Of a stretch of 64,000 nucleotides of DNA, positions 41,921 through 56,881 are shown piece by piece. The translations under genes were made by a program, and so were the position numbers. The number at the start of each line of letters is the position of its first letter. Within the stretch, counting starts at the first letter, position 1. The DNA is from Onchocerca volvulus (taxonomy: Eukaryota > Nematoda > Chromadorea > Rhabditida > Onchocercidae), in contig HG738140.1 in assembly GCA_000499405.2 (NCBI GenBank), forward strand, positions 10,133,560-10,197,559. The letters run 5' to 3'. The notes beneath the pieces were generated by a model. The model was not told the origin of the DNA. It made no database searches and saw only the letters and a list, made by a program, of their open reading frames with translations.

Positions 41921-42437
41921 CCGATCTTTTTTACCGTGACAATAATAAGGGTTCTTACTTTTTATTGTATTGTCATCGAATATTTCGCGGTATCTCAAAC
42001 CTGGGTAATTGAATCTTTATTACAAAAATTAGATAATACAATAACGTACGAACAAGTACAAATCAATTATATCAATAAAACAGTGTAAATGAGGATTTAT
42101 TAATACGAGAAAATGGGATAAAGATATTATTAAGAAGAAACTTGAATTATCCCAGACGGAGGATCCAACCGCATTCATAGTTAGCCTTCTTTTCAAATGA
42201 TGCACAAAGGAGCATCTCCGTTACATGAAAAAGGTTTTCTTTGTTAGCGCATGAGACAGCGCTTTTACGGTATGATTTACAACAGTATAAAATAAAAGTT
42301 AAACCATTCGACATAGCCATAAAATAAGCTTAAGCTATTTAACAAGACCATAAAACTGAGTCATTTAATTTGAAATAAAGAAATAAATTTTTTACAATCA
42401 TCAAAGGCTACAAATTATTTCCTTTAAAACAAAGAAA
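41921..42437 (-). repeat. Probable 3' LTR or trailing sequence of the BEL/Pao element
   Basis: It lies directly after the pol stop on the minus strand and shares a 15-base identity with 17028-17042 of this window. The end near CGGCGACA (about 41921) fits an LTR terminus. No 5' partner is present, so the borders are not proven. Confidence 0.4.
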
Positions 42438-43723
42438 TCACATTTCTCTGATCTTCCTCACGCTCATTTCAGCGACACTCCCGAGGCGAACGATCTTTTT
42501 GATTTTGTTTTCTGTCGGAGATCCCCAAGGGATAGAGATACCTACTGTTCTCACTAGCCCGCTTCCACTGGCTATTCTTACCACTGCTGGTCGGCATATA
42601 CCATCCTTACCCCTCATGAGTCTCTGTACTCTTCCCATTTTCCAAATATTTCTAAGGTAATCTGCTTTCAACAACACCAGCTCTTCTAAATATTCCTCTC
42701 GCCATACTTTCCATAACTTATCAAGTCTTTTGCATGCTGTTGTATATTGATGTGTCAATTCTTTTGTTTGCAGATTTTCAGTGTTGTTTGTAGCATTATC
42801 TCTATTGTAATTCTGTCCTTCTATTAACCGTTCTCCTCGAGCTGAGCCTGGATGTAAGAAATCCTCAGGTCTTAACACCAGCCTATCTCTTCGATATCTA
42901 TTAAAGATCTTTCATTGATAATTGCTTCAAGTTCCGCGATTAGCGTTATTAATTCTGCATTGTTAAGAAGCTTTGTACCTATAGTTCTTCTTAAGGATCT
43001 TTTAACAACTCCAAACATTCTTTCATAAATGCCGCCTTGCCAAGTAGCGCCTGGAGTAATGGATTTCCAATCCATGATTTCATTTTCCGTTCTTTCAATC
43101 TTATAAGTATCTTAGAAGCTGTTATAAGATTCTTAGCATTGTCAGGAACTACGTGTTTCGGTTGTTTTCTTCGGCTTATAAATCTTCTGAATGCTTGTAT
43201 GCATCGCTTTCCATTACTTCAAGGTGCACTGCTTTAGTTGCCAAACATGTAAACAAAGCCATCCATCGTTTGGTTTTGACATGATTCTCCATTATTTTAA
43301 TTGGGCCAAATAAGTCTACACCAGTTGTTTCAAATGGTTGCGTTGCTGTAACTCTAGCAGTAGGATATGGAGGAAAATCTGGTTATTCAAATGGCGTAAC
43401 CACCCACATAGCGCAACCTTTACAAATCTTTCTTAAGATCTTCGTAATATATGCCTGTTCATGCGGGATCCAATACCGTTGTCTCATTTTACTCCTGTGT
43501 AATGCACGCTCGCATGAAATGATTTTTCATGGTAATGTTTCACAATGAATTCTGCAAGCTTTCCTCTATTGATGAAGTATGGAAAGTCCTCAATTTGAGG
43601 CATAGCCTGTCTCGTCTTCCAACGCATCTTCAACTCCCATTCTGATCTTTTCTTAAACCCCAATGTTCGATTTCTTTTTGTGTTATGTTTGATTGTGCCA
43701 TCTTGACTAACAGTTGTGTTCAT
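42438..43723 (-). pseudogene. Integrase region of the BEL/Pao element
   Basis: A zinc-binding start (HYHEKSFHASVHYTGVK, then CKGC) and the central piece TTGVDLFGPIK are seen. A later piece has GGIYERMFGVVKRSLRR, the region of the third catalytic acid, and the C-terminal part runs to the stop at 42438. Several stops and frame shifts lie between 43480 and 42880. Confidence 0.8.
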
Positions 43724-43877
43724 AATCTTTAGAAGTAATATTCTCCTTCGAGAACTCTTTCAAATTTCTTATCTTTTCTTTTGATATCTTCGCAAGGAAT
43801 CTTAAGACGTATAGTATCGTTCTTATTAACTTGAATAGGGATGAGAATCTTGTTTCATCTATCAGTGCCATTACTTT

Positions 43878-44608
43878 CTATGATTGTATTTCTTCCTTTT
43901 CCATCAATCCCATACTCATACACACACTAATAATGCTTTCTTCCATGACTTTGTTCTCAGGCCAGTTTTCTTTCGGTTCCCACAGCCATGGTGGACCATT
44001 CCACCATAACAAATTTTCTTTCAAATTTTGTGGGGGAAGTCCTCGTGAAGCCTGGTCTGCTGGATTATTTGTTGATCTTACATGACGGTATTCAATTTCT
44101 TTACATCTTCTTATTTCATCAATTCTATTTGAGATATATCTGGATCCTACTGGCGCTTTTCTTAGCCAGTGCAGAACACAACCGCTATCTGTCCATAAGT
44201 ATGTCTTTCCCACTTCAATTTCTTGTCTGATGAATTCCAGCGCTTTTACTCCAAGTGTGACGGCGAGTAACTCCAATCGGGGAATACTGGCGATTGATTC
44301 GTATTTTCTCGTTTTGGCACTAATCTTGTCTTTTCGTAGGTCAGTTGTGGTTTACATGGCGTATTACTGCTTCTACGTGCATATAGTGCTAGACCCATAG
44401 CCTTTTCGGATGCATCTACAAACACATGTATTTCAGAGTATTCTTGCGGCGTCCATCGTGATATTTCCATGACATCAACTTGATTAAATGCCTTTTCTAA
44501 CTCCAAGCAGCGTCTCATTTCTTCAGGTTCCAAATTTTCATCCCATGGCATACCTTTCTTCCACATGTCCTGAATCAAAAGTTTCCATAGAAGTATGATT
44601 GGACTCAT
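43878..44608 (-). pseudogene. Connection and RNase H region of the BEL/Pao element
   Basis: Two overlapping open pieces show EIHVFVDASEKAMGLALYAR, MELLAVTLGVKALEFI, YLWTDSGCVLHWLR and STNNPADQASRG. These are the usual RNase H landmarks (D...E...D...D), split by a frame change near 44250. Confidence 0.8.
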
Positions 44609-44686
44609 TATTCCTAATGGATCGTAAATACCAGCATAGAATTGTAATATTTGGCGTTTTGTCTGAAGGCCTTCTTGTGGAATCTT

Positions 44687-45400
44687 CTAGTTCCATGTAA
44701 ATTTATCCTTGCTATTATTCCATTCGATGCCTAACAATTTTACTTTTGTCTTCTCTGTCATTTCTTGCTCATTGTCCATGTTAATGTCATGATTTGCATG
44801 GAATCTTCTCAATTGCATCTTAGCTTTCTTAAATAGTTCTTTCGCTTTCTTGGCTTTTCTGATACTTTCTGATTCACTTTCTGAGGTTAGTACAATATTA
44901 TTAACGTAGAGATTCTTTGCAATTTCTATTGATAATTTAGAGTGTTCTTCACTCAGCAGATGTCTAATGACAGCGGCTAATAGAAAAGGCGATGACACTA
45001 CACCAAAGGGTACTCTTGCGAAGCGAAAAGTAACCAAATTTTCTTGAGTCGCCTCCTTCGATTTATCTTTCAGCCACAAAAACCTAGTGACATCTCTGTC
45101 TTCCCGTTTCAAGCTAACTTGCAAAAATGCCTTTTCCACATCAGCTATCACCAGATAACGTCCTTGCCTAGCTCGTAAAAGAATTCCTATTAATGATGGT
45201 AACATTACTGGTCCCTTATACAGTCATTCATATAGCGATGGTCCTTCATTCATCTCTGCTGATGCGTCTAATACTACTCTTAATTTAGTGGTAGAGTTCT
45301 GAGGTGTTATTACTGTTTGGTTAGGCAAGTAAGATACTGACGATGTTTCAGTTTGGTCCCAACTTTTTCTCTAACTCCTTATAATAATTTTGTAAAATAT
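44687..45400 (-). pseudogene. Reverse transcriptase domain of the BEL/Pao element
   Basis: The core is clear: LRVVLDASAEMNEGPSL, then GPVMLPSLIGILLR, VIADVEKAFLQVSL and FARVPFGVVSSPFLLAA. A stop falls between the first two blocks. At the catalytic loop, where active relatives have Tyr-Val-Asp-Asp or a close variant, this copy reads LYVNN, so polymerase function is almost certainly lost. Confidence 0.85.
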
Positions 45401-45746
45401 TCATCGTAACGTTCCAATAATTCTGGAGATTTCTTTAATTTTCGTATTGTCGATCGTAATCGTCCCTGTGCCAGTCCATATCCTTTTGCTGGCGTCATCT
45501 CTTGATTCATCCATGGCCAACCCATAACTCATCTTCCTTCCTTCACTGTTTATAGTGAGCGTTTTTTGGAATGCTTCAAGGGCCTTTTCATCCTGATATT
45601 CCGCTATTAAATCTTTAATTCCAATTGCTTCCAATTTCAATGTTTGTTCAATCTGATCCATTTGCATTTGTGATTCCTTTTTTGTTATATTTGCAATTGC
45701 TTCAATTACATGAGACTCGTTATTTTCCATTTCTCTATTGTCTTAC

Positions 45747-45912
45747 TTTACCTTTCGTGTACCGCCTGTGACCACTCCTATTTCTGTTTCCATTACCATT
45801 TCTCCTGGTGGGTGTTTTGTGCAATTACGAATGACTAAATCCGCAATTCCTTCCACGCCTAATAACACATCTGGTTTTCCCACTTTCCTTTTTCAAGCTC
45901 CGTCGCTTGCAT
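45747..45912 (-). pseudogene. Protease C-terminal remnant of the BEL/Pao element
   Basis: The fragment KPDVLLGVEGIADLVI, ending TEIGVVTGG, fits the end of a Pao aspartic protease (D-V-L-I-G ... T-x-x-G-x-x-x-x-G). The catalytic Asp region is absent because the copy is truncated. Confidence 0.6.
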
Positions 45913-46770: not shown

Positions 46771-49700
46771 ATGGACAGCGAACATCGCGTTATATTGAAT
46801 GTGGGAGGAATTCGACATGAAACATATGCTCACGTACTCAAAAAAATTCCAGCTACAAGACTGTCTAGGTTCTCTCTAAATTTTTACTTTTCAGATCTAT
46901 GTGAGTAGACTAATTTCATTTAAACACTATAAACTTTTAATTTCTGTTTTTATGGACACATAATTAGTCTAAACTGAAAAATTATGAATCTTTTAAAATA
47001 TGAAATTTAATTTTTAGGTTGACACCCAATTTGGCAAATTATGATCCTCTGTTGAATGAATATTTTTTTGATCGTCATCCTGGCGTTTTTTCAATGATTC
47101 TAAATTATTATCGAACAGGTGGACAATTTTTTGAAGATTGTAAATTTAGGAAAGTTTTCTCGGAACTTTTATTTATAATTTCGGGAATTTTTTGCTTCAT
47201 ATACTTTTAATTGATTGATTCTTTCATTGTTAGGAAAGTTACATTATCCGACCAATGTTTGTGGTCCATTGTTCGAGGATGAATTGGAATTCTGGGGTTT
47301 AGATGCAAATCAGGTAGAACCATGCTGCTGGATGACTTATACACAACACCGGTAATAATTCGTAACGAAAAAACAATTAGTATTTCTAGAATTCTAATTT
47401 AAAACAATGAATCATTCGTGAATTTCAAAATTTGCATCATGTATTTTATGAAATGTAAAAAATCTAATGTTCCAACAGTACGGTATTAATTTCATAAGAG
47501 ATCTGAAATCGAAAAAAATTATGCATATAAATAAAGAAAAATTGAGACTTACTGTTTTATTAATCATATCATATATATTTTTTTTTATATCATCATAATT
47601 ACCAAAATATCAAAATATTTGAAAGTATTTAGAGATACTCAAGAAACGCTGGCCGTTATCGAAAGCTTAGACCTGGATGCCGAGCCACCAACCCAAGAAG
47701 AAACAGCGAAAAAATTTGGCTGGGAAGATGATTATTATTCAGGCAATTTATCAAAATGGCAACAGTTGAAACCAAGAATATGGGCTTTGTTTGATGAACC
47801 TTGGTCTTCTCAGTATGCTAAGGTAAGTTAAACTTAACTTAAAAACTTTATAAAATAGAGGAAAATGTGTTATGAGAAATATTATAAATTAATCTCAGTT
47901 GATATAAAGGCTTTTTACTTATGGGAATTTCAAATTCTTTAAATTTCGATAACCATTTTTTCCGATTGCATCATTTAAATAAGCAGTGACAAATATCATT
48001 TAGCATCCTTAGTTGCGTGCTGTATGATCTGATAATCTAGTTAGAAGTACCAGTTTTTAAAAATTGCATTCATTACTGAATAGTTCTCTGCATGTTTCAA
48101 GTTGTCGAATAAAGCTGAGCATGCCGCATACTTGCTGAAAGCTTGCTCGAACTAAGCCAAAGGCAATCTAACTTTCATCGAATGCAAAAATACTGAAACA
48201 AGAATTTAAAATTAGCCATCAGTTTTTTAGTTAGATTACGAAGATCCCTGAATGTTTTTTTCTTTCTTTTTTCCCAAGTTTGTTTTTGAAACTATTGCGG
48301 ACATTTGGAAATAGTTCGGATGCAGGCTTTTGGCAGAAATTTGCTTATCATAAATGTATTTAACTTTGTAATGCTTTCTAACGATTTACCGTGCTTCCAA
48401 TTGAATGCTTGAAAAGTCATTCAGATAATTCCATATTCTTCTATATTTTTCATTAACGCCAATATCGTTTCACTTATCTCAAAACGCATCCTTCATTCCA
48501 GATATCATCCATTCCAGGTCAGCAACTTCTTGTTAAATTTCGAAGGAAAAATTTAGTCATTATTGCAGAAAGGTCCAGCAGGCATCAAGTACAATGCACC
48601 ATAACATGGTACCAGGAAAATTTGGAAATAATGAAATTCAATGCATGATATGAATTTAATCTGTGATTTTTTATGTTTTGTATAATCTAAATATTTTCAG
48701 TGTAATATAATACAAAAGTTGGCAGAAATGGTACCCATTTGGCAATTATATCCGAGCCATTTAATAATGCGCATCCCGCATTCTTTATTGTTCTCATATG
48801 CAACATACATTTTAGCGTTAAGCTTGTTAGTGTAAAAATACTGCTCATTAATATTTCTCAAATGAAAACGATGATACTATCAAAACATGATGGTGATGAT
48901 AAGATAAGGGAATTTTCATGATACGTTTGTGTTGGTCAGATTAATTGTATCGAAACTTCTTGTATAAAACTCATTATTCAAAATACATCGAATTGAACAA
49001 ATCGAAGCTTTAATTTAAAATAGTCGAATTTAACAAATCTCTCTTCTTTATGTTATAATAAAATATCATTGTCAGATAAATTATGATAGATATATTCAAA
49101 TTTTTAACGGAGCTATTTCTAATTAAGCAAGTTAGATGTTTTTTATTTTTAAATTTTTAGATAATTCGTATAATATTTGCGCCATCATTGCAACGATTCA
49201 TCAAATCACCTGTAGCAATTATCGATCTATTAGCAACAGGATCTTTTTTCTTGGATTTGCTAGTGACCAGTTTTTCAAGTAATCGATCTAGCTCGAATTC
49301 TATCCAATTCTTGTCTCTATTACGTGTTTTAAGGCTATTCAAGTTCGCTGAACATTACAGTGGACTTAAAATACTCATTCAAACATTTAAGGCAATTTAA
49401 AAAATTTCTAGATTAAATTCTATTGCTTTCTTTAAAGGAACAGAACTTCTTGCAAGTTGCCAAATAAATCCCTCCATTCTTTTTCTATATCAGCAAATAA
49501 TTTTGGAATAATCTTTTTCTAGGATAGGAAGAAAATAGCAAGTTGCCCGCCACTGAACAGAGGAAATTCTCAATGATTCGTGAATTGGGATTGTTAGTAC
49601 TAAGGGCAGAAAAAGATGACATGAAGATATCATCAGAATGAATGATTATATTGCCAACTTGATCGAAGCTAATCTATGTATCTGTAAAAATGAAGCATAG

Positions 49701-52700
49701 ATAAAAGTCGTATTTCACTTCTTCCACTTTTTTCAAATTATTTTTTTCAAAATAGTTTTCTTATTTGCAAATTTCACGAATTTTGTTATAGGTATCGGTA
49801 AAGGAGTTGTTATTATTGGGATTTTTCGTGCTCTTAGCGACTGTCATATTCTTTGCACTTGAATATTACGCTGAACGAATCGGAGATAATCCAGAAAATC
49901 AGTTCATTTCGATACCAGATGGACTGTGGTGGTAAGCTTTTGTCTGTTCATGTTTTCCTTTTTGTTTTTATCTCTCCATACATCTCTCACTGTTTTGAAA
50001 GTTCTTTCTATTTGATGGAAATAATCTTTATACTTTCTATGATCAAATTAACAATTTCAGGGAAATTGTAACGATGTGTACAATTGGATTTGGCGACATA
50101 GTAATTGCTTGAAATTACCATCTGTCTCAAAAGCTTGCCTTTTTCTACCATCTTAAATTAATCAATTGATTCCATCTTGTATCATATTATTTCCAATTTA
50201 TCTTGCAATTATTTCGCTATTGCTATCGATCCCTCAGTCACTTTTCTTTTCATTTGAATTAAATTAATGCTTTTTTCAATACTCAATAGTTATTTATTAA
50301 ATCTTTAATTGTTTTAATTTTCCAAAAATAGTCATTGTCTTGGTGCATATTAAATGGCTCAATTTTCAGATTCCCAAAACATATTTGGGCAGGTTTGTTG
50401 GTTCATTATGTGCACTGATGGGTGTATTAACTATTGCATTACCAGTGCCCGTTATCGTTGCTAATTTTTCCAATCTCTACTCTCGTTCACAAGTAATTTC
50501 TTTAATTTTATTAAAGGATTTTTTTTTCTTTATTTTTAGTGCAATAAGTAATACTTAAAGAAACATTAATTTTGTTAAAAACTTTAATCTCATTCGCAAG
50601 TAATTTCTTTATTTTTTTTTTAATGATTCGTATTTACCTTGGATTCTGCAATAGATTTCAAAAATAGTGCTTGAATTTGACATTTATTTATTAGTAGTAA
50701 CTATGTAAAAAGCTTCCGATTCCTTTGTGATAATCATTTGTTCCATAGCACACCATTTGCTATAATTGACACCCTAATGGAACTATTACGCTTATTATTC
50801 CAAAAATTCAAATCATCTTTTGAAATTTAGCGAATTTATCTTGAACATTTTTCTACTCTGCTGTTACATAATATTCATCGAACCTAGTCTCAAATAGCAT
50901 TAAAAGCAAGTTTGCTTGGAATCTTATTCTTCGGGCTTGCAATTCAATTATTTGACTTTAACAGGCTCATGCGAAATTGTCAAAAAAAAGGAGGCGAGTT
51001 TTGCATGAATTAATACGTCGCTTAAATTCCCCAAATCAATGAAAAAATCATAGGGAGAAGGAAATAAGGTCGCTCATGTAATTATTTAATGATTTTTTGA
51101 ATTCTAATTTTACTTTCCACCGTCATTAATGTTATAAATAATAGAATTGGATTATTTTTTTACTTTATCAAGCTTTATGCTTTACTAAAACACTCGTAGT
51201 GACAGCATTATTAGTTCATTCAAAGCATATTTTTTTTTTCAGAACCACTGACGTTTCCGAAATTCAGTATCACTCAGAATCGAATTCAGTTTCATAGCAT
51301 GGAATCTGTATTCGTTTGTCAAGCAATTTTTGTGTGAAATTTGATGGTTGTACAGCCATGGGTTAATGCATTTTCAGAATTAATTTCAACTGTATTCTTC
51401 ATTGCTTATGCAGAATCATTGACTGATTTGTGCAAGTAGTGAAGAATATAATTGAGTTCTGCGGAGAAAAGGCTTTAACTGCTTTGACACATTTCAATTC
51501 AGACACACTGCCATGCTTTTGTTCTATATCTTTTTATATTGCTTCGCTTACTTTGAATTTAATTTATTTGTCGCTGCTTATCCGTTTGGCTCTCTTTCTC
51601 ATGTAAGTCTGCATAGTTATTTATTTTGATTTAGAATGCTATAGAGTTTTTTATTATTCTTTCGGTTAATGGAAGATGAAATTTGAACATGCAAGTAGAA
51701 TATAGTTGAAGGATTCAATTCTCTGCCAAAAACAAATTATCAACTCGTTTTCTGATTTGTCTTTAAATGTTGTTAGGAAAAGAAGGATGTTGATTGATTT
51801 GTAATCTGGAATTCTAGAGTCATTGGACTGGAGATTTTTTTGCTGCTTTGATTTGACTAGATCAATAATAGCTTTTATGAAGTTTACACGATATTATAAA
51901 CAATATCGCTCTTTACAATAGCAAACAATGAAAAAAGAAAAATATGCGAATAATAAAAATAATGCAATAGCGGCCTTTTGAAGAACTGTTGCTTAGCTTC
52001 ATTGAGATTGCTTGATATTGTCGGGGAACTTTTTGCCACTGATACTGATGTAAAAGAGTCTGTATCTGATGTAGTTCCCTTGTTGCTGATAAACTGACGA
52101 TGTAGACACTTGTAGAAACTGAAGCCCGCCACTAGTCTTGATGTATGGTGATAGGAATATTGAAGAGACTGCTGCTGCCGCTGCTGTTGATATACTCAAG
52201 CACTGATCTGCTGCCCCGAAAGCTCCCCTTTTATATGGTCATCTTTGATAGGAGCGGAGATTCACACAACACATTAGTTATACAAAAAAGATTGGTTTGG
52301 ATAAAAACTAAAGGATAAGAGATAAGTAATGCTTAAAACAGTTAAGCAAAGAACAAAGATTTAATCCCTAAATTACTCGATAATTAACATGGTTGCAACC
52401 ATTTGCAATTCTTTAGACAAAGATTATGATATTAATCCCTGTGACATTCCAGACATTGGCATGTTTTTACAATCATTTAAGCATTTTTACAACCATTTAC
52501 AAAAAGTTTTACAGCCATTTACAGTACTTAAACAAAGCACATGAACATTATCAGCAGATTAGTTTATGAGAAACATAAGAGCCATTGTGCGCAATATAGA
52601 TAAATGGCTTATATGTATGAAATTACAAATTTTTATTGTAAACAACATTTGGATTATGTCAACATTTCGGTTTACTGACAAATGCAATCGATATTTGGTA

Positions 52701-55700
52701 AATAGACTCCCAAATCATAGCTTTATCTTATCTTTTATACCATGTGTGGTAATTTTTTATTGCTACAGCTTTTTGGCAGTGTATTTTTCAGCTTTTTTTT
52801 GAGAGCAATGAATTTGATATTTAAAAGAATGGAATGCTTGGCAGTTAACATCTTATTGCTTATTTATTCAATAGATATCAAAAGCATTGACACAAAAAGT
52901 ATCGTACACTTATAACGAAATTTTTAAACTTTATATATATTGCAATATCGATTAATTGATAACTGAATGGAAAGAGATGAAAAGAAAAGACAAATTAGCG
53001 TATATTTTATCATCATCACACTCAGATTGATCTATTTTCGATAAATCTCAAAGGAAGTAGTTAAACTGCTTCCTTTGAGATTATTATCTCCCATATATCA
53101 TTGACTGCTTTTGGACATAAAACATTAGTTTTCACAAAATATCAACTGATCCTCTTAAAGCGATACATGCTCTTACTAAATTTTAATAATAATGCCTACA
53201 CTCACTAAATCCTCAGATCACTGCATGCGCTTATCAAGCTTAAATTTTTTCCTAATGCAATGGGGATTCACAAAAAAAAACGTAAACACGAATCAGTTAA
53301 TTTACTAAACCAATGTGAAAACGCAACATTGATGCTGAAATGTTATTTAGCTCACTGTAACATTCAAAAATTTGGGAAATAGACTAAATTTTACTGAAGA
53401 ATGGTGAGTACGAATTTCGATTCATTCATGAGAGAATGGAAGTTTTGTCTAACTTTTTGTTTTTCTTATGCTTAATTTTGCTTATTGCATTATTGCTGTT
53501 GCTTATTTGCTTTGGAATAAATAATCTTTCTTTGCATGAAGTCTTCAGTTCTGTTTTTTATTTTTAAGGAATATTCAAGACTAATCAGGAATTACTGCAA
53601 GATTTAACAAATGCTACAAATCAAAGTTTAACAATTCAGAAATCTTTTTTAAAAATTTCAGAAAAAAAGTAATGTTTGCATCATTAGTTGTATTTGGGAG
53701 ACATGGTGGGGGAATCTTTAAGGATTGGAGAGAAACATTTAATAGAAATTGTAAGAAATGAGAAATGGTTGAAGAATTAAGTGGAAGGGATAGCACAAAG
53801 AATGAAATGGTCTAACAAATTCAACTTTGCTGTTCAAATATAAATTATAAATATGAAAAATATGGATCCTTATAAAAAAAAATTTTTTTTAAACAATACT
53901 GGCAAAGATATAAAATGAAATGATACATTTGCAGGTAATTTCAGTAATATCCGTATTTTTTGTGATCATGTCAATAATTTGTTTTTGCTTAAAAACACAT
54001 CCGGATTTGCGTATTCCGGATATCGATATTGATATCAGGAATACTTCTACTCATGTATTGTTTGTCACGAAAACTACTACAAGGTAAAATTCTTCACGTG
54101 TTTCAATTATATCAATCTCTCAACATTCATACAAAATATTCTCAATATTTTCATCTTATTATAAAATTAAATTATAAATTTATTAATTGCTCCTTAAACC
54201 ATCTTATCATCGACACTAAAGACGGAGTGGAATGCTTTCATTTTTTTTGGGAATAAATTTGTATAATTTGGAATACTTGATATATGAATATAATTATTGA
54301 AAAATTGTTGAGCGCAAACAAAATCAGAAAATTTCTAAAATATCATTCATTATCCTTTTTCTTTCAAAAATCAATTCTGACAATGCTATTGATAAAAGTG
54401 ATGACACTATCATAAAAAATATTGTTTGAATGGTATAATTTCACAAAATTTGTCAAAAGACAGAGTATAGAAGAAAGATTGCATAATAGAAACTACTGAA
54501 CTTGATCCTGAAATTTTCCTGCGCTTGAATAAAAGATTTGAAAGATTAAACTTTATCGCAATTATCAACAATATAGAGCATCCAAAAGCAGGGAAATGCC
54601 CAGAAAGCGAGCATTCATTAGCTGATTTAACAATTCATTTATCATATTCTGATGATAATTAATAATGCGAACTGTAATGTAGTTAATTATGATTTCTGAA
54701 ATTAAAAACGCTGTTATGCCGTCTCTATAAGTTAATAAATAACAAAACAAAGAAAAAATAATGAAAAAAAAGCAAAATAATTTTAAATAAAGTTGTGTAG
54801 CAAAGACATTGTCGAGAATGAAAATGAAAAATAGAATTTATATTTATTTAAAAATTTGTATTTCTTAAAAAATTTCCAGAGCACATCCAGCCTTCTTTTA
54901 CATTGAATTTGTCAGTAACATATGGTTTACAGTGGAACTATTCATCCGTTTTCTATTTTGCCCCAAAATATCAAAGTTTGTCCAACAACCAATCAACATT
55001 ATTGGTAACTTATATTCTACACCTTTACTTTTATACATTTAATTATTCATTATTTCCATAGGTGTGCATTCTGTTTATATTAATTTTCTGAATGAATTCA
55101 ATGCTGGCTCAAGTGTTATTTTGCTTTATTGTAAATCTCTTTTTTCTAAGTTTTTTAGACTTAATAGCGACATTATCGTTTTACATTGACTGGGCGCTGG
55201 ATCAGGCAGTAACTGGTGCCAATCGCGATACTGTTGAGTTTATTTCCATTATTAGAATTTTGCGACTGTTCAAACTGACGCAACATTCTTCGGGACTCAA
55301 AATTCTTATCCAAACATTTAAGGCATCTGCTCAAGTAAATTTAACTGAAATTTATAAAAGTTTACAGTAAGCAATAAGTGAAAGATAGAAATATTGCCAA
55401 GGAATCGAGCAATTTCCAATTTCTTGTTTTTTTTTTTTTTTTTTGATATTTTCCAATGCTTTTCTTGAATGTTTTTTCTAATTCAATGAAAAAATAGAGT
55501 AACCGCAATAGTTTAAAAAAAAAAATAGTGACCAAAAAAGATTAAATTTGTTTCAGTTTCATTTCATTTTTGTATTTGATTATTAAATTTGTTATAGGAA
55601 TTATTATTACTAGTTTTTTTTGTATTACTTGGTATAGTGATATTCGCAGCTCTAGTCTATTATGCGGAACGAGTCGAGACAAATCCAGGCAATCAATTTC

Positions 55701-56881
55701 ACTCAATCCCAGTCGGATTGTGGTGTAAGTGTGTCATATTTTTCCCTAAAGTTTTTGAAAAGCAAGATGAAACTGACGTTGTTTCATACATAAATATGAA
55801 TTTGTTCGTTTAGTGCTAGCATACATCGAACTATCGTAATTTAAACATTATAAACGCCAAAAGAATTCAGAGGATTCTTTTACCAATCGATTCAAGATGT
55901 GGTTTAAATTTAGTAGAACACGAATTCGAAAAATGGAATTTAATTTTTCCAGAAATATGTCTTTTCTATATTTATATTTATGTATTTATAGGGGCAATCA
56001 TTACTATGTGTACAATTGGCTTTGGAGATATGGTAAATTTTTAGTTCTATTTATTTTTCAGATGAAAACAATTTCTGGCATTCCGCTCAGAACTGATATA
56101 AAAACTGATTTGATAAAATTTGGAATAAATTTTGTGAAAAAAAAAGAAAGTTGATCGGTGACTACACTAAATATAGAAATCAAGATCATTTAAAATATTT
56201 TTCTCACTGTTTCATTGTCAAACAAATCTATGCAATCTCAATCATTTTGTTTATCGAAATTCCATTCATTTCGTCAGTTATTATTTTGGTATTATATAAT
56301 TCTGTTTATTTTAACTGAGCAATAAGATCGATTCAAAAAATGAAATCAAATTAATTTTAGGTCCCAAAAACGTATTTGGGAATGCTAGTCGGTTCGGTTT
56401 GTGCATTAATGGGAGTGTTAACAATTGCACTTCCAGTTCCAGTCATCGTTTCCAATTTTGCAATGTTTTATTCACATGCCCAAGCTCGGTAAAGCTTTAA
56501 TTTCTTTATTTTTGTTTAATTTATATAATAACAAAACGATGCCACTACTATTCCATGAATTTTTGGTAATATTTAAGTTTCTCCAGTATTCGAAATCTAA
56601 ATTCTAGATCGAAATTGCCCAAAAAACGACGTCGTATTTTACAACCATATGAAATCAAACCAATGTTTGGAAGACTAGCAACTGCACCATTTTTCAATAG
56701 CTTAACCAATGAAAATACATCATCGATCCAATCGTCGCAAGTACTGGGAGCTTTGACGGCTACGGCTCCATTACTGATATGTCCATCGGCGAACGATTTC
56801 ACTGCTGATTTGAAATCAAGCCTCAATCATCACTCTATTAGCAGCAAAACTAATACTTCGAATGATAACAAAAACGACTAA
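46771..56881 (+). CDS. Shaw (Kv3)-type voltage-gated potassium channel
   Basis: Forms tetrameric K+ channels in excitable cells. Eleven exons join in phase: 46771-46868, 47018-47118, 47234-47351, 47633-47822, 53935-54083, 54880-55004, 55159-55334, 55598-55724, 55992-56032, 56361-56488 and 56608-56881, giving about 508 residues. The T1 domain (about 7-110) has [33 protein letters not shown] and [16 protein letters not shown], all Shaw-specific. S1 is at about 170-192, S2 225-245, S3 260-275, S4 288-310 ([20 protein letters not shown]), S5 320-342 and S6 385-410 with PVPV. The filter reads [10 protein letters not shown], with GFG where GYG is usual. S4 has Gln where Shaw channels usually have a fourth positive residue. 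The 6.1-kb intron between T1 and S1 (47823-53934) contains a second copy of the core. Closest known worm relatives are EGL-36 and SHW channels; which one is not decided. Confidence 0.93.
48416..51042 (+). pseudogene. Extra copy of the channel core (S1 broken, S2-S6 open) inside the channel gene
   Basis: Exons matching the downstream core lie in order: S2 about 48726-48825, S3-S4 49161-49391, S5 49792-49931, pore 50061-50100, S6 50370-50492, C-terminus 50965-51042 with its own TGA. They join in phase from S2 onward. The S1 exon (about 48416-48516) is a remnant: [10 protein letters not shown] remains, but the hydrophobic part is out of frame with a TAA at 48454. After S4 ([20 protein letters not shown]) no GT donor exists; AAG|GCAATT would work as a GC-AG intron and keeps alignment length exactly. 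The filter is CTIGFGDI. No T1 exon of its own was found. It may be a decaying tandem duplicate, or a supplier of alternative 3' exons; the clean S3-S6 argues for recent or continuing constraint. Confidence 0.75.
51043..51995. other. Between the two channel cores, no gene seen
   Basis: Intronic to the channel gene. No coding exon recognised and no T1-like sequence for the downstream core. Confidence 0.5.
52000..52455 (-). repeat. LTR-like module with TATA box and initiator
   Basis: On the minus strand a TATAAAAGGGG (TATA at 52235-52229) is followed about 31 bases later by an initiator-like TCAGT (52206-52202), then CAG-rich sequence. The module could begin at TGTCTGGAATG (52455). The layout resembles retroelement LTR promoters, and the sequence around the initiator (AGCAGATCAGT) resembles 58079-58089. 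No target-site duplication or second LTR was found; a genuine gene promoter is the alternative. Confidence 0.4.
52380..52525. repeat. Degenerate TTTTACAACCATTTA repeats
   Basis: Three to four imperfect copies of TTTTACAACCATTTA-like sequence lie in direct orientation, overlapping the start of the LTR-like module. Confidence 0.5.
53044..53082. repeat. 17-bp inverted repeat with one mismatch
   Basis: The left arm AATCTCAAAGGAAGTAG and the right arm CTGCTTCCTTTGAGATT pair around TTAAA with a single mismatch. It is intronic, upstream of the S1 exon. Confidence 0.85.

What the first reader, a model, noticed from the sequence alone, without database searches (positions are those of the whole stretch)
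46771..56881. One T1 domain followed by two consecutive channel cores in a Shaw K+ channel locus
Seen: T1 exons once, then two ordered sets of S1-S6 exons, each with its own stop. The T1 donor (phase 0) joins directly to S1 of the second core. The first core has a damaged S1, but S2 to stop is open and in phase. Known: whole-core duplication inside a channel gene is not the usual form of Kv diversity. Inference: either a partial tandem gene duplication that lost its own T1, or alternative 3' ends giving different channel subunits.
Basis: partly seen in the sequence, partly recalled or inferred. Interest (0 to 1): 0.75.

Follow-up and report, generated by a model that had tools for sequence, protein, structure and literature searches.

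The report
One potassium-channel gene, two alternative cores
A nematode potassium-channel gene carries one shared assembly domain followed by two alternative channel bodies, a layout found in many roundworms, and in this Onchocerca-like worm the first body looks to be falling apart so that only the second is still readable as a whole.

Summary
One four-exon Shaw-type T1 (46771-47822) is followed by two ordered sets of channel-core exons, each with its own stop: core 1 (48425-51042) and core 2 (53935-56881). T1 plus core 2 reads as an intact 508-aa Kv3/Shaw subunit. The duplication is old. In a tree of 65 cores, core 1 and core 2 fall in separate nematode groups, and 17 taxa (window included) have a row in each. 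A duplication confined to filariae and near kin is rejected (p-AU 3.7e-31). In Haemonchus one gene id has two annotated products with identical T1, one joined to each core. Best reading: an old 3' duplication made one gene with two alternative channel bodies behind one T1. In this Onchocerca-like worm the first body is decaying: a frameshift in S1, a stop in the S1-S2 linker, a residue missing from S2, and recent changes that ignore conservation. Its open S3-to-stop frame is unsurprising in a young pseudogene. The Dirofilaria core-1 gene model looks broken too; Loa, Brugia and Cercopithifilaria models look largely intact. The splicing choice rests on public annotation, not reads. C. elegans was not checked.

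The parts
46771..46868 (+). T1 exon 1 (start codon; [10 protein letters not shown])
   Evidence: translation and splice sites; tblastn
47018..47118 (+). T1 exon 2
   Evidence: BTB_2 hit
47234..47351 (+). T1 exon 3 ([24 protein letters not shown]; Shaw-type CC motif, motif name recalled)
47633..47822 (+). T1 exon 4, T1-S1 linker; phase-0 donor GTAAGT, the shared branch point
48425..48517 (+). core 1 S1 exon, frameshifted
   Evidence: tblastn with O. flexuosa P0189; splice signals
48701..48825 (+). core 1 S1-S2 linker and S2 exon; in-frame TAA at 48703-48705, S2 one residue short
49161..49391 (+). core 1 end of S2, S3, S4 exon; followed by a GC donor
49792..49931 (+). core 1 S5 and pore-helix exon
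50061..50100 (+). core 1 selectivity-filter exon (TIGFGD)
50370..50492 (+). core 1 S6 exon
50965..51042 (+). core 1 tail exon with stop
53935..54083 (+). core 2 S1 exon (phase 0 with T1 donor)
54880..55004 (+). core 2 S2 exon
55159..55334 (+). core 2 S3-S4 exon
55598..55724 (+). core 2 S5 and pore-helix exon
55992..56032 (+). core 2 selectivity-filter exon (TIGFGD)
56361..56488 (+). core 2 S6 exon
56608..56881 (+). core 2 tail exon with stop

Best explanation
This is a nematode Shaw (Kv3) gene with one T1 and two alternative channel cores. An old duplication of the 3' part of the gene (S1 to stop) put a second complete core downstream. In relatives the T1 donor is joined to S1 of core 1 or, skipping core 1, to S1 of core 2, giving two subunits with the same T1 and different voltage sensors, pores and tails. 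Because T1 sets which Kv subunits can assemble (established for the Kv family; stated in PMC9989356, passages), the two products should be able to co-assemble; that step is inferred. In this Onchocerca-like lineage core 1 has lost its function and is decaying, so the gene now makes a full channel only as T1 + core 2. Shown here: exon layout, open T1 + core 2 model, lesions in core 1, age of the duplication. From public annotation: both joins in Haemonchus. Inferred: co-assembly, different roles of the two subunits, and the absence of any core-1 product here.
For: Exon layout and 508-aa open model. One T1 only; no second core 1 found in the genome. Tree of 65 cores: 30 rows on the core-1 side (99/95), 28 on the core-2 side (96/79), 17 taxa in both; a clade of both cores from filariae, Thelazia, Toxocara and Enterobius rejected, p-AU 3.7e-31. 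H. contortus V3C99_011301: P0009 = T1 + core 2 and P0024 = T1 + core 1, T1 identical over 167 of 167 residues and joined at the same QYAR boundary. Consecutive locus tags, with T1 only in the core-1 member, in Loa (LOAG_01086/01085), Necator (RB195_020474/020473) and C. briggsae (L5515_013435/013436). Ten gene models chain all or part of one T1 with both cores, whole or in part (P0001-P0005, P0007, P0008, P0011, P0012, P0018). Core 1 decay: lesions; 17 of 116 sites invariant in 18 other core-1 rows changed here, against 0 to 6 (of 41 to 122) in seven control rows (p = 0.0001 against Loa, 0.0008 against Cercopithifilaria, 0.015 against Thelazia, the three controls tested); changes private to the window fall equally on invariant (7 of 89) and other sites (6 of 84, p = 1), while changes shared with O. 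flexuosa avoid invariant sites (5 of 89 against 21 of 84, p = 0.0005).
Against: No RNA data were available, so both joins rest on annotation in one species and on gene models elsewhere; many annotations make core 2 a separate T1-less gene. P0189 (O. flexuosa) is a gene prediction that skips the end of S4 and the start of S5 and ends after S6, so 'intact in O. flexuosa' is not certain. The 28-row core-2 branch misses the star (SH-aLRT 79) and the Plectus rows are long. Counts of recent changes are small (13 private to the window). Core 1 exons 3 to 7 are open with normal splice signals except one GC donor, which is what a retained, trimmed product would also show.
Confidence: 0.82

Rival explanations
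1. In this species core 1 still makes a trimmed subunit: T1 spliced straight to the exon at 49161 (both phase 0), giving T1-S3-S4-S5-pore-S6 without S1 and most of S2, which would act as a poisoning or modulating subunit of T1 + core 2.
For: The T1 donor and the exon at 49161 are in phase and the frame runs open to 51042 if the GC donor is used. The L. sigmodontis model P0002 has the same kind of join (QYAK|VIRMLFAPSL).
Against: Window-private changes are as frequent at invariant as at other sites, and include a new arginine in S6 and a new glutamate in the pore helix. Under random substitution the frame stays open in 0.39 to 0.47 of simulations at 6.7 to 8.4% residue change. P0002 is a gene prediction.
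Confidence: 0.08
2. Recent tandem gene duplication in filariae that lost its own T1; core 1 never was an alternative exon set.
For: Layout alone would fit.
Against: Core 1 and core 2 group with their counterparts in Caenorhabditis, strongylids and Steinernema; a clade of both from filariae and near kin is rejected, p-AU 3.7e-31. No T1 trace between the cores.
Confidence: 0.02
3. The two cores are two separate genes: core 2 (and perhaps core 1) has its own promoter and start, and the single T1 belongs to core 1 only by origin.
For: Several annotations give core 2 as a T1-less protein (P0122, P0123, P0124, P0125, P0128, P0131, P0132, P0133). Some filarial models start at an ATG inside the core-2 acceptor region (P0121, P0123, P0124), and D. 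immitis has such a form (P0121) beside T1 + core 2 (P0006).
Against: T1 joins core 2 in annotated Haemonchus, Cylicocyclus and D. immitis products (P0009, P0010, P0006), and here the join is in phase and open. A T1-less form could coexist.
Confidence: 0.05
4. Assembly error in core 1 (false frameshift and stop).
For: Single assembly available; no reads.
Against: Several separate lesions plus an excess of residue changes at invariant sites; the D. immitis core 1 model looks broken as well (P0012).
Confidence: 0.03

Closest known systems
Shaw / Kv3 (KCNC) voltage-gated K+ channels
   Same: T1 with CC motif, S1-S6 and an S4 [18 protein letters not shown]; best solved matches are Kv3.1 (7pqt, E 6.8e-135), and the Shaw T1 3kvt at E 4.7e-66.
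   Different: Filter reads TIGFGD where Kv3.1 and the arthropod Shaw rows seen have GYGD; two cores on one T1.
Shaker (Drosophila Kv1) alternative splicing
   Same: One channel gene diversified by splicing (PMC9989356, passages).
   Different: In Shaker parts of the channel vary around a common core (recalled); here the whole S1-to-stop part is duplicated and T1 is the common part. [quoted passage not shown]
Second Shaw-type gene of the same genome (C3:15267759-15272511)
   Same: Same family; T1 and core hits.
   Different: One set of core hits there in a capped hit list.
Nematode genes with a shared 5' exon and alternative downstream bodies (cha-1/unc-17 locus, recalled)
   Same: Shared 5' part joined to one of two downstream coding bodies (recalled).
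   Different: There the shared exon is non-coding (recalled); here it is a coding assembly domain.

Membership tests
Shaw / Kv3 channel (T1 + core 2) | BTB_2 T1 domain with Shaw-type CC motif | tested here: met
   Pfam BTB_2 95 bits; 3kvt Shaw T1, E 4.7e-66; CC read in the sequence
Shaw / Kv3 channel (T1 + core 2) | S1-S6 with S4 positive repeat and pore | tested here: met
   Ion_trans 147 bits; Kv3.1 7pqt E 6.8e-135
Shaw / Kv3 channel (T1 + core 2) | GYGD selectivity filter | tested here: not met
   TIGFGD in both cores. Of 66 nematode rows examined 61 have GFGD (Trichinella among them), 3 GYGD and 2 neither, so it is taken as a nematode variant of the motif and not as an exclusion from the family
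Alternative-core Shaw gene | one T1 followed by two cores in one locus | tested here: met
   17 taxa with both core types
Alternative-core Shaw gene | T1 joined to each core in mature RNA | tested here: inconclusive
   annotated products of one Haemonchus gene id; no reads available
Unitary pseudogene (core 1 in this genome) | disabling lesions and loss of constraint, with intact relatives | tested here: met
   Loa P0028, Brugia P0042 and Cercopithifilaria P0001 largely intact as models (P0042 lacks the S4 part, P0028 ends before the tail exon)

The most novel reading that the evidence does not exclude
In nematodes with both cores intact, some transcripts chain T1, core 1 and core 2 into one polypeptide: a two-domain, 12-transmembrane Kv subunit with one T1, of the kind otherwise assumed as a step towards two- and four-domain channels. 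Three filarial gene models (P0001, P0005, P0007) join the core-1 tail to core-2 S1 at the corresponding place, and two models from distant clades (P0004, P0011) share another junction.
Probability: 0.04. Interest if true: 0.85.

Novelty: new variant of a known kind. Interest (0 to 1): 0.5.

Why it matters
If confirmed in RNA, a whole voltage-gated channel body is an alternative exon set behind one fixed assembly domain, kept over the long history of chromadorean nematodes. That would be a natural way to make two kinds of K+ channel subunit able to mix. The filarial lineages that lose core 1 are natural knock-outs of one form, and would allow a direct test of what the second body is for. It also warns that automatic annotations split or fuse this gene.

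Tried and rejected
Recent duplication in filariae and near kin: rejected. A second T1 or a second core 1 elsewhere in the genome: not found (six-frame searches that may miss short exons and score only the best candidates). Open frame of core 1 as proof of function: rejected as weak, since simulated random substitution leaves it open in 0.39 to 0.47 of runs at 6.7 to 8.4% residue change. TIGFGD as a marker of the duplication: rejected, because Trichinella has GFGD too. Insect models with two S1 hits (P0014, P0130): read; they look like a chained neighbouring gene and a repeated segment, not like this layout. dN/dS between the two cores: not computed; I judged the divergence too old, and no DNA of relatives was held. 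Polyadenylation-like words were listed after both stops and gave no clear answer. Literature: ten counted searches; no title or abstract start that was listed pointed to this gene layout, but the lists were short extracts (15 of 310, 12 of 23) and only passages of three papers were read. That library lacks most subscription journals, and WormBase was not available.

Rows dropped before counts: the tree left out rows P0005, P0012, P0015, P0017, P0018, P0033, P0043, P0067, P0121, P0127, P0137, P0187, P0192, P0194, P0195 (partial, duplicate or near kin of rows kept) and the insects P0014 and P0130; P0136 was named but fell out because it was not in the segment search; segments spanning under 150 residues (such as the Elaeophora core-1 piece) were dropped by the script. 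Further hits in the lists were not used. The homology tables show only the best 120 of 3515, 983 and 303 hits. The conservation counts used 18 reference rows chosen by hand from the 30 core-1 rows of the tree (window and O. flexuosa being two of those 30).
Full report
What is there. The window lies in a 94.7-Mb genome of 115 contigs. Its core 2 is 99% identical to an Onchocerca ochengi protein over 92% of the S1-S4 stretch (P0043), so the source is probably an Onchocerca close to O. ochengi/O. volvulus (inferred). Four exons (46771-47822) encode one Shaw-type T1. Its last donor is GTAAGT in phase 0. Seven exons (53935-56881) encode S1 to S6 and a tail. Joined, they give 508 aa without a stop, with Pfam BTB_2, Ion_trans and Ion_trans_2. 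The closest solved structures are Kv3.1 (E 6.8e-135); the Shaw T1 3kvt matches at E 4.7e-66. Between T1 and core 2 lies another, upstream set of core exons, 48425 to 51042.

State of the first core. Compared with the O. flexuosa model P0189, the S1 exon (48425-48517) is recognisable and has AG and GT splice signals, but the reading frame shifts inside it. The next exon (48701-48825) has an in-frame TAA in the S1-S2 linker, and S2 is one residue short. From 49161 the frame is open for 203 codons to a stop at 51042, with normal splice signals except a GC donor after 49391. The translation matches Kv3.1 at E 2.7e-47. The tail ends earlier than in Brugia or Cercopithifilaria (by eye). No second core 1 was found in the genome, no second T1 in the window, and no other BTB_2 hit on this contig.

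Age. Three searches of the protein collection (best 120 hits of each listed) returned nematode proteins with one or both cores. A tree of 65 core segments has a core-1 side of 30 rows (support 99/95, or 100/98 without Plectus) and a core-2 side of 28 rows (96/79, below the star). Trichinella, Trichuris and arthropod Shaw rows (7) lie outside both. Seventeen taxa, the window included, have a row on each side: Plectus sambesii, Mesorhabditis belari, Caenorhabditis sp. 36, C. briggsae, Ancylostoma caninum, Necator, Haemonchus, Parelaphostrongylus, Thelazia, Loa, Brugia, Wuchereria, Cercopithifilaria, Litomosoides, Steinernema glaseri, S. hermaphroditum and the window. Forcing the 19 rows of both cores from filariae, Thelazia, Toxocara and Enterobius into one clade costs 116 log-likelihood units (p-AU 3.7e-31). 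On this tree the duplication predates the split of Plectus from the rhabditid orders, with the caution that the two Plectus rows are long. Some lineages show one core only: Strongyloides rows fall on the core-2 side, Ditylenchus and Panagrolaimus rows on the core-1 side. These absences rest on capped hit lists.

One gene, one T1. In Haemonchus contortus a single gene id (V3C99_011301) names P0009 (T1 + core 2) and P0024 (T1 + core 1). Their T1 parts are identical over 167 of 167 residues, and both join at the same QYAR boundary. D. immitis P0006 and Cylicocyclus P0010 are T1 + core 2 as well. In Loa, Necator and C. briggsae the T1 + core 1 protein and the T1-less core 2 protein bear consecutive locus tags. 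Brugia, Thelazia, Caenorhabditis sp. 36 and M. belari list both on a contig of the same length. Ten models chain all or part of one T1 with both cores, whole or in part, and two partial models chain both cores without T1 (P0127, P0195). Of the 11 in which a core-1 to core-2 junction was found, three filarial ones (P0001, P0005, P0007) share the corresponding place, two (P0004, P0011) share another, and six differ. Such scatter is what one expects of gene finders that bypass the core-1 stop, but the shared junctions leave a real two-domain product not excluded.

Loss of constraint. Against 18 reference core-1 rows, the window's core 1 differs at 17 of 116 invariant sites. Seven control rows differ at 1 of 108 (Loa), 0 of 98 (Brugia), 3 of 109 (Wuchereria), 3 of 119 (Cercopithifilaria), 1 of 115 (Litomosoides), 6 of 122 (Thelazia) and 1 of 41 (Acanthocheilonema). 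With O. flexuosa as the near relative (173 shared sites), changes shared by both avoid invariant sites (5 of 89 against 21 of 84 at other sites, p = 0.0005), while those private to the window do not (7 of 89 against 6 of 84, p = 1); O. flexuosa has 5 private changes against the window's 13. I read this as constraint on the Onchocerca stem and none since. T1 differs from O. flexuosa at 1 of 169 positions. Random substitution leaves the 203-codon frame open in 0.47 to 0.39 of simulations at 6.7 to 8.4% residue change, so the open frame is no proof of use. Other filariae hint at the same erosion: the D. immitis core-1 model looks broken, A. viteae P0187 seems to leave the frame after S5, and the L. 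sigmodontis model lacks S1 and most of S2. These are gene models, not checked on DNA. Against the reading: O. flexuosa P0189 is itself a prediction that skips the end of S4 and the start of S5, so its core 1 may not be fully intact.

How it works. Inferred from the layout and from the established role of T1: the T1 donor chooses between two S1 acceptors. If it takes core 1, the transcript ends behind the core-1 stop. If it skips core 1, it makes core 2. The two subunits share T1 and so should be able to mix in one tetramer. In this worm the gene is reduced to the T1 + core 2 product, across a 6.1-kb intron that still holds the decaying core 1.

Compared with what is known. The family is Shaw/Kv3. 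The TIGFGD filter departs from GYGD; 61 of 66 nematode rows examined have GFGD, Trichinella among them. No listed title or abstract start in the ten counted literature searches pointed to a whole-core duplication behind one T1. [quoted passage not shown] PMC6602206 (egl-36) and PMC4714817 (egl-36, shw-3) give no gene structure in the passages seen. C. elegans databases may already list isoforms of its orthologue; that could not be checked. A UniRef name (BMA-SHW-1 for the Brugia core-2 protein) suggests shw-1 as the C. elegans namesake.

Noticed in passing
window about 42100-45900, - strand: Remains of a retroelement just upstream of the T1 exons (extent judged by eye); the ORF 44687-45205 matches RVT_1. 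The sequence reads like a BEL/Pao element (recalled, not tested).
   Followed up: partly
window 53920-53934: An ATG lies in frame just before the core-2 S1 acceptor (MIHLQ|VISV). Filarial models P0121, P0123 and P0124 start core 2 at the corresponding place, so a T1-less core-2 form is conceivable.
   Followed up: no
both cores, 50061-50100 and 55992-56032: Selectivity filter TIGFGD instead of GYGD in a Shaw-type channel; 61 of 66 nematode rows examined have GFGD, 3 GYGD, 2 neither.
   Followed up: partly
P0187, P0012, P0002, P0007 (public proteins): Core 1 models of A. viteae, D. immitis, L. sigmodontis and Elaeophora look damaged or cut, hinting at repeated erosion of core 1 in filariae.
   Followed up: partly
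P0014 (Anopheles) and P0130 (Papilio): Insect Shaw models with two S1 stretches: an apparent chained neighbour gene and a repeated T1-linker/S1/S2 segment.
   Followed up: partly
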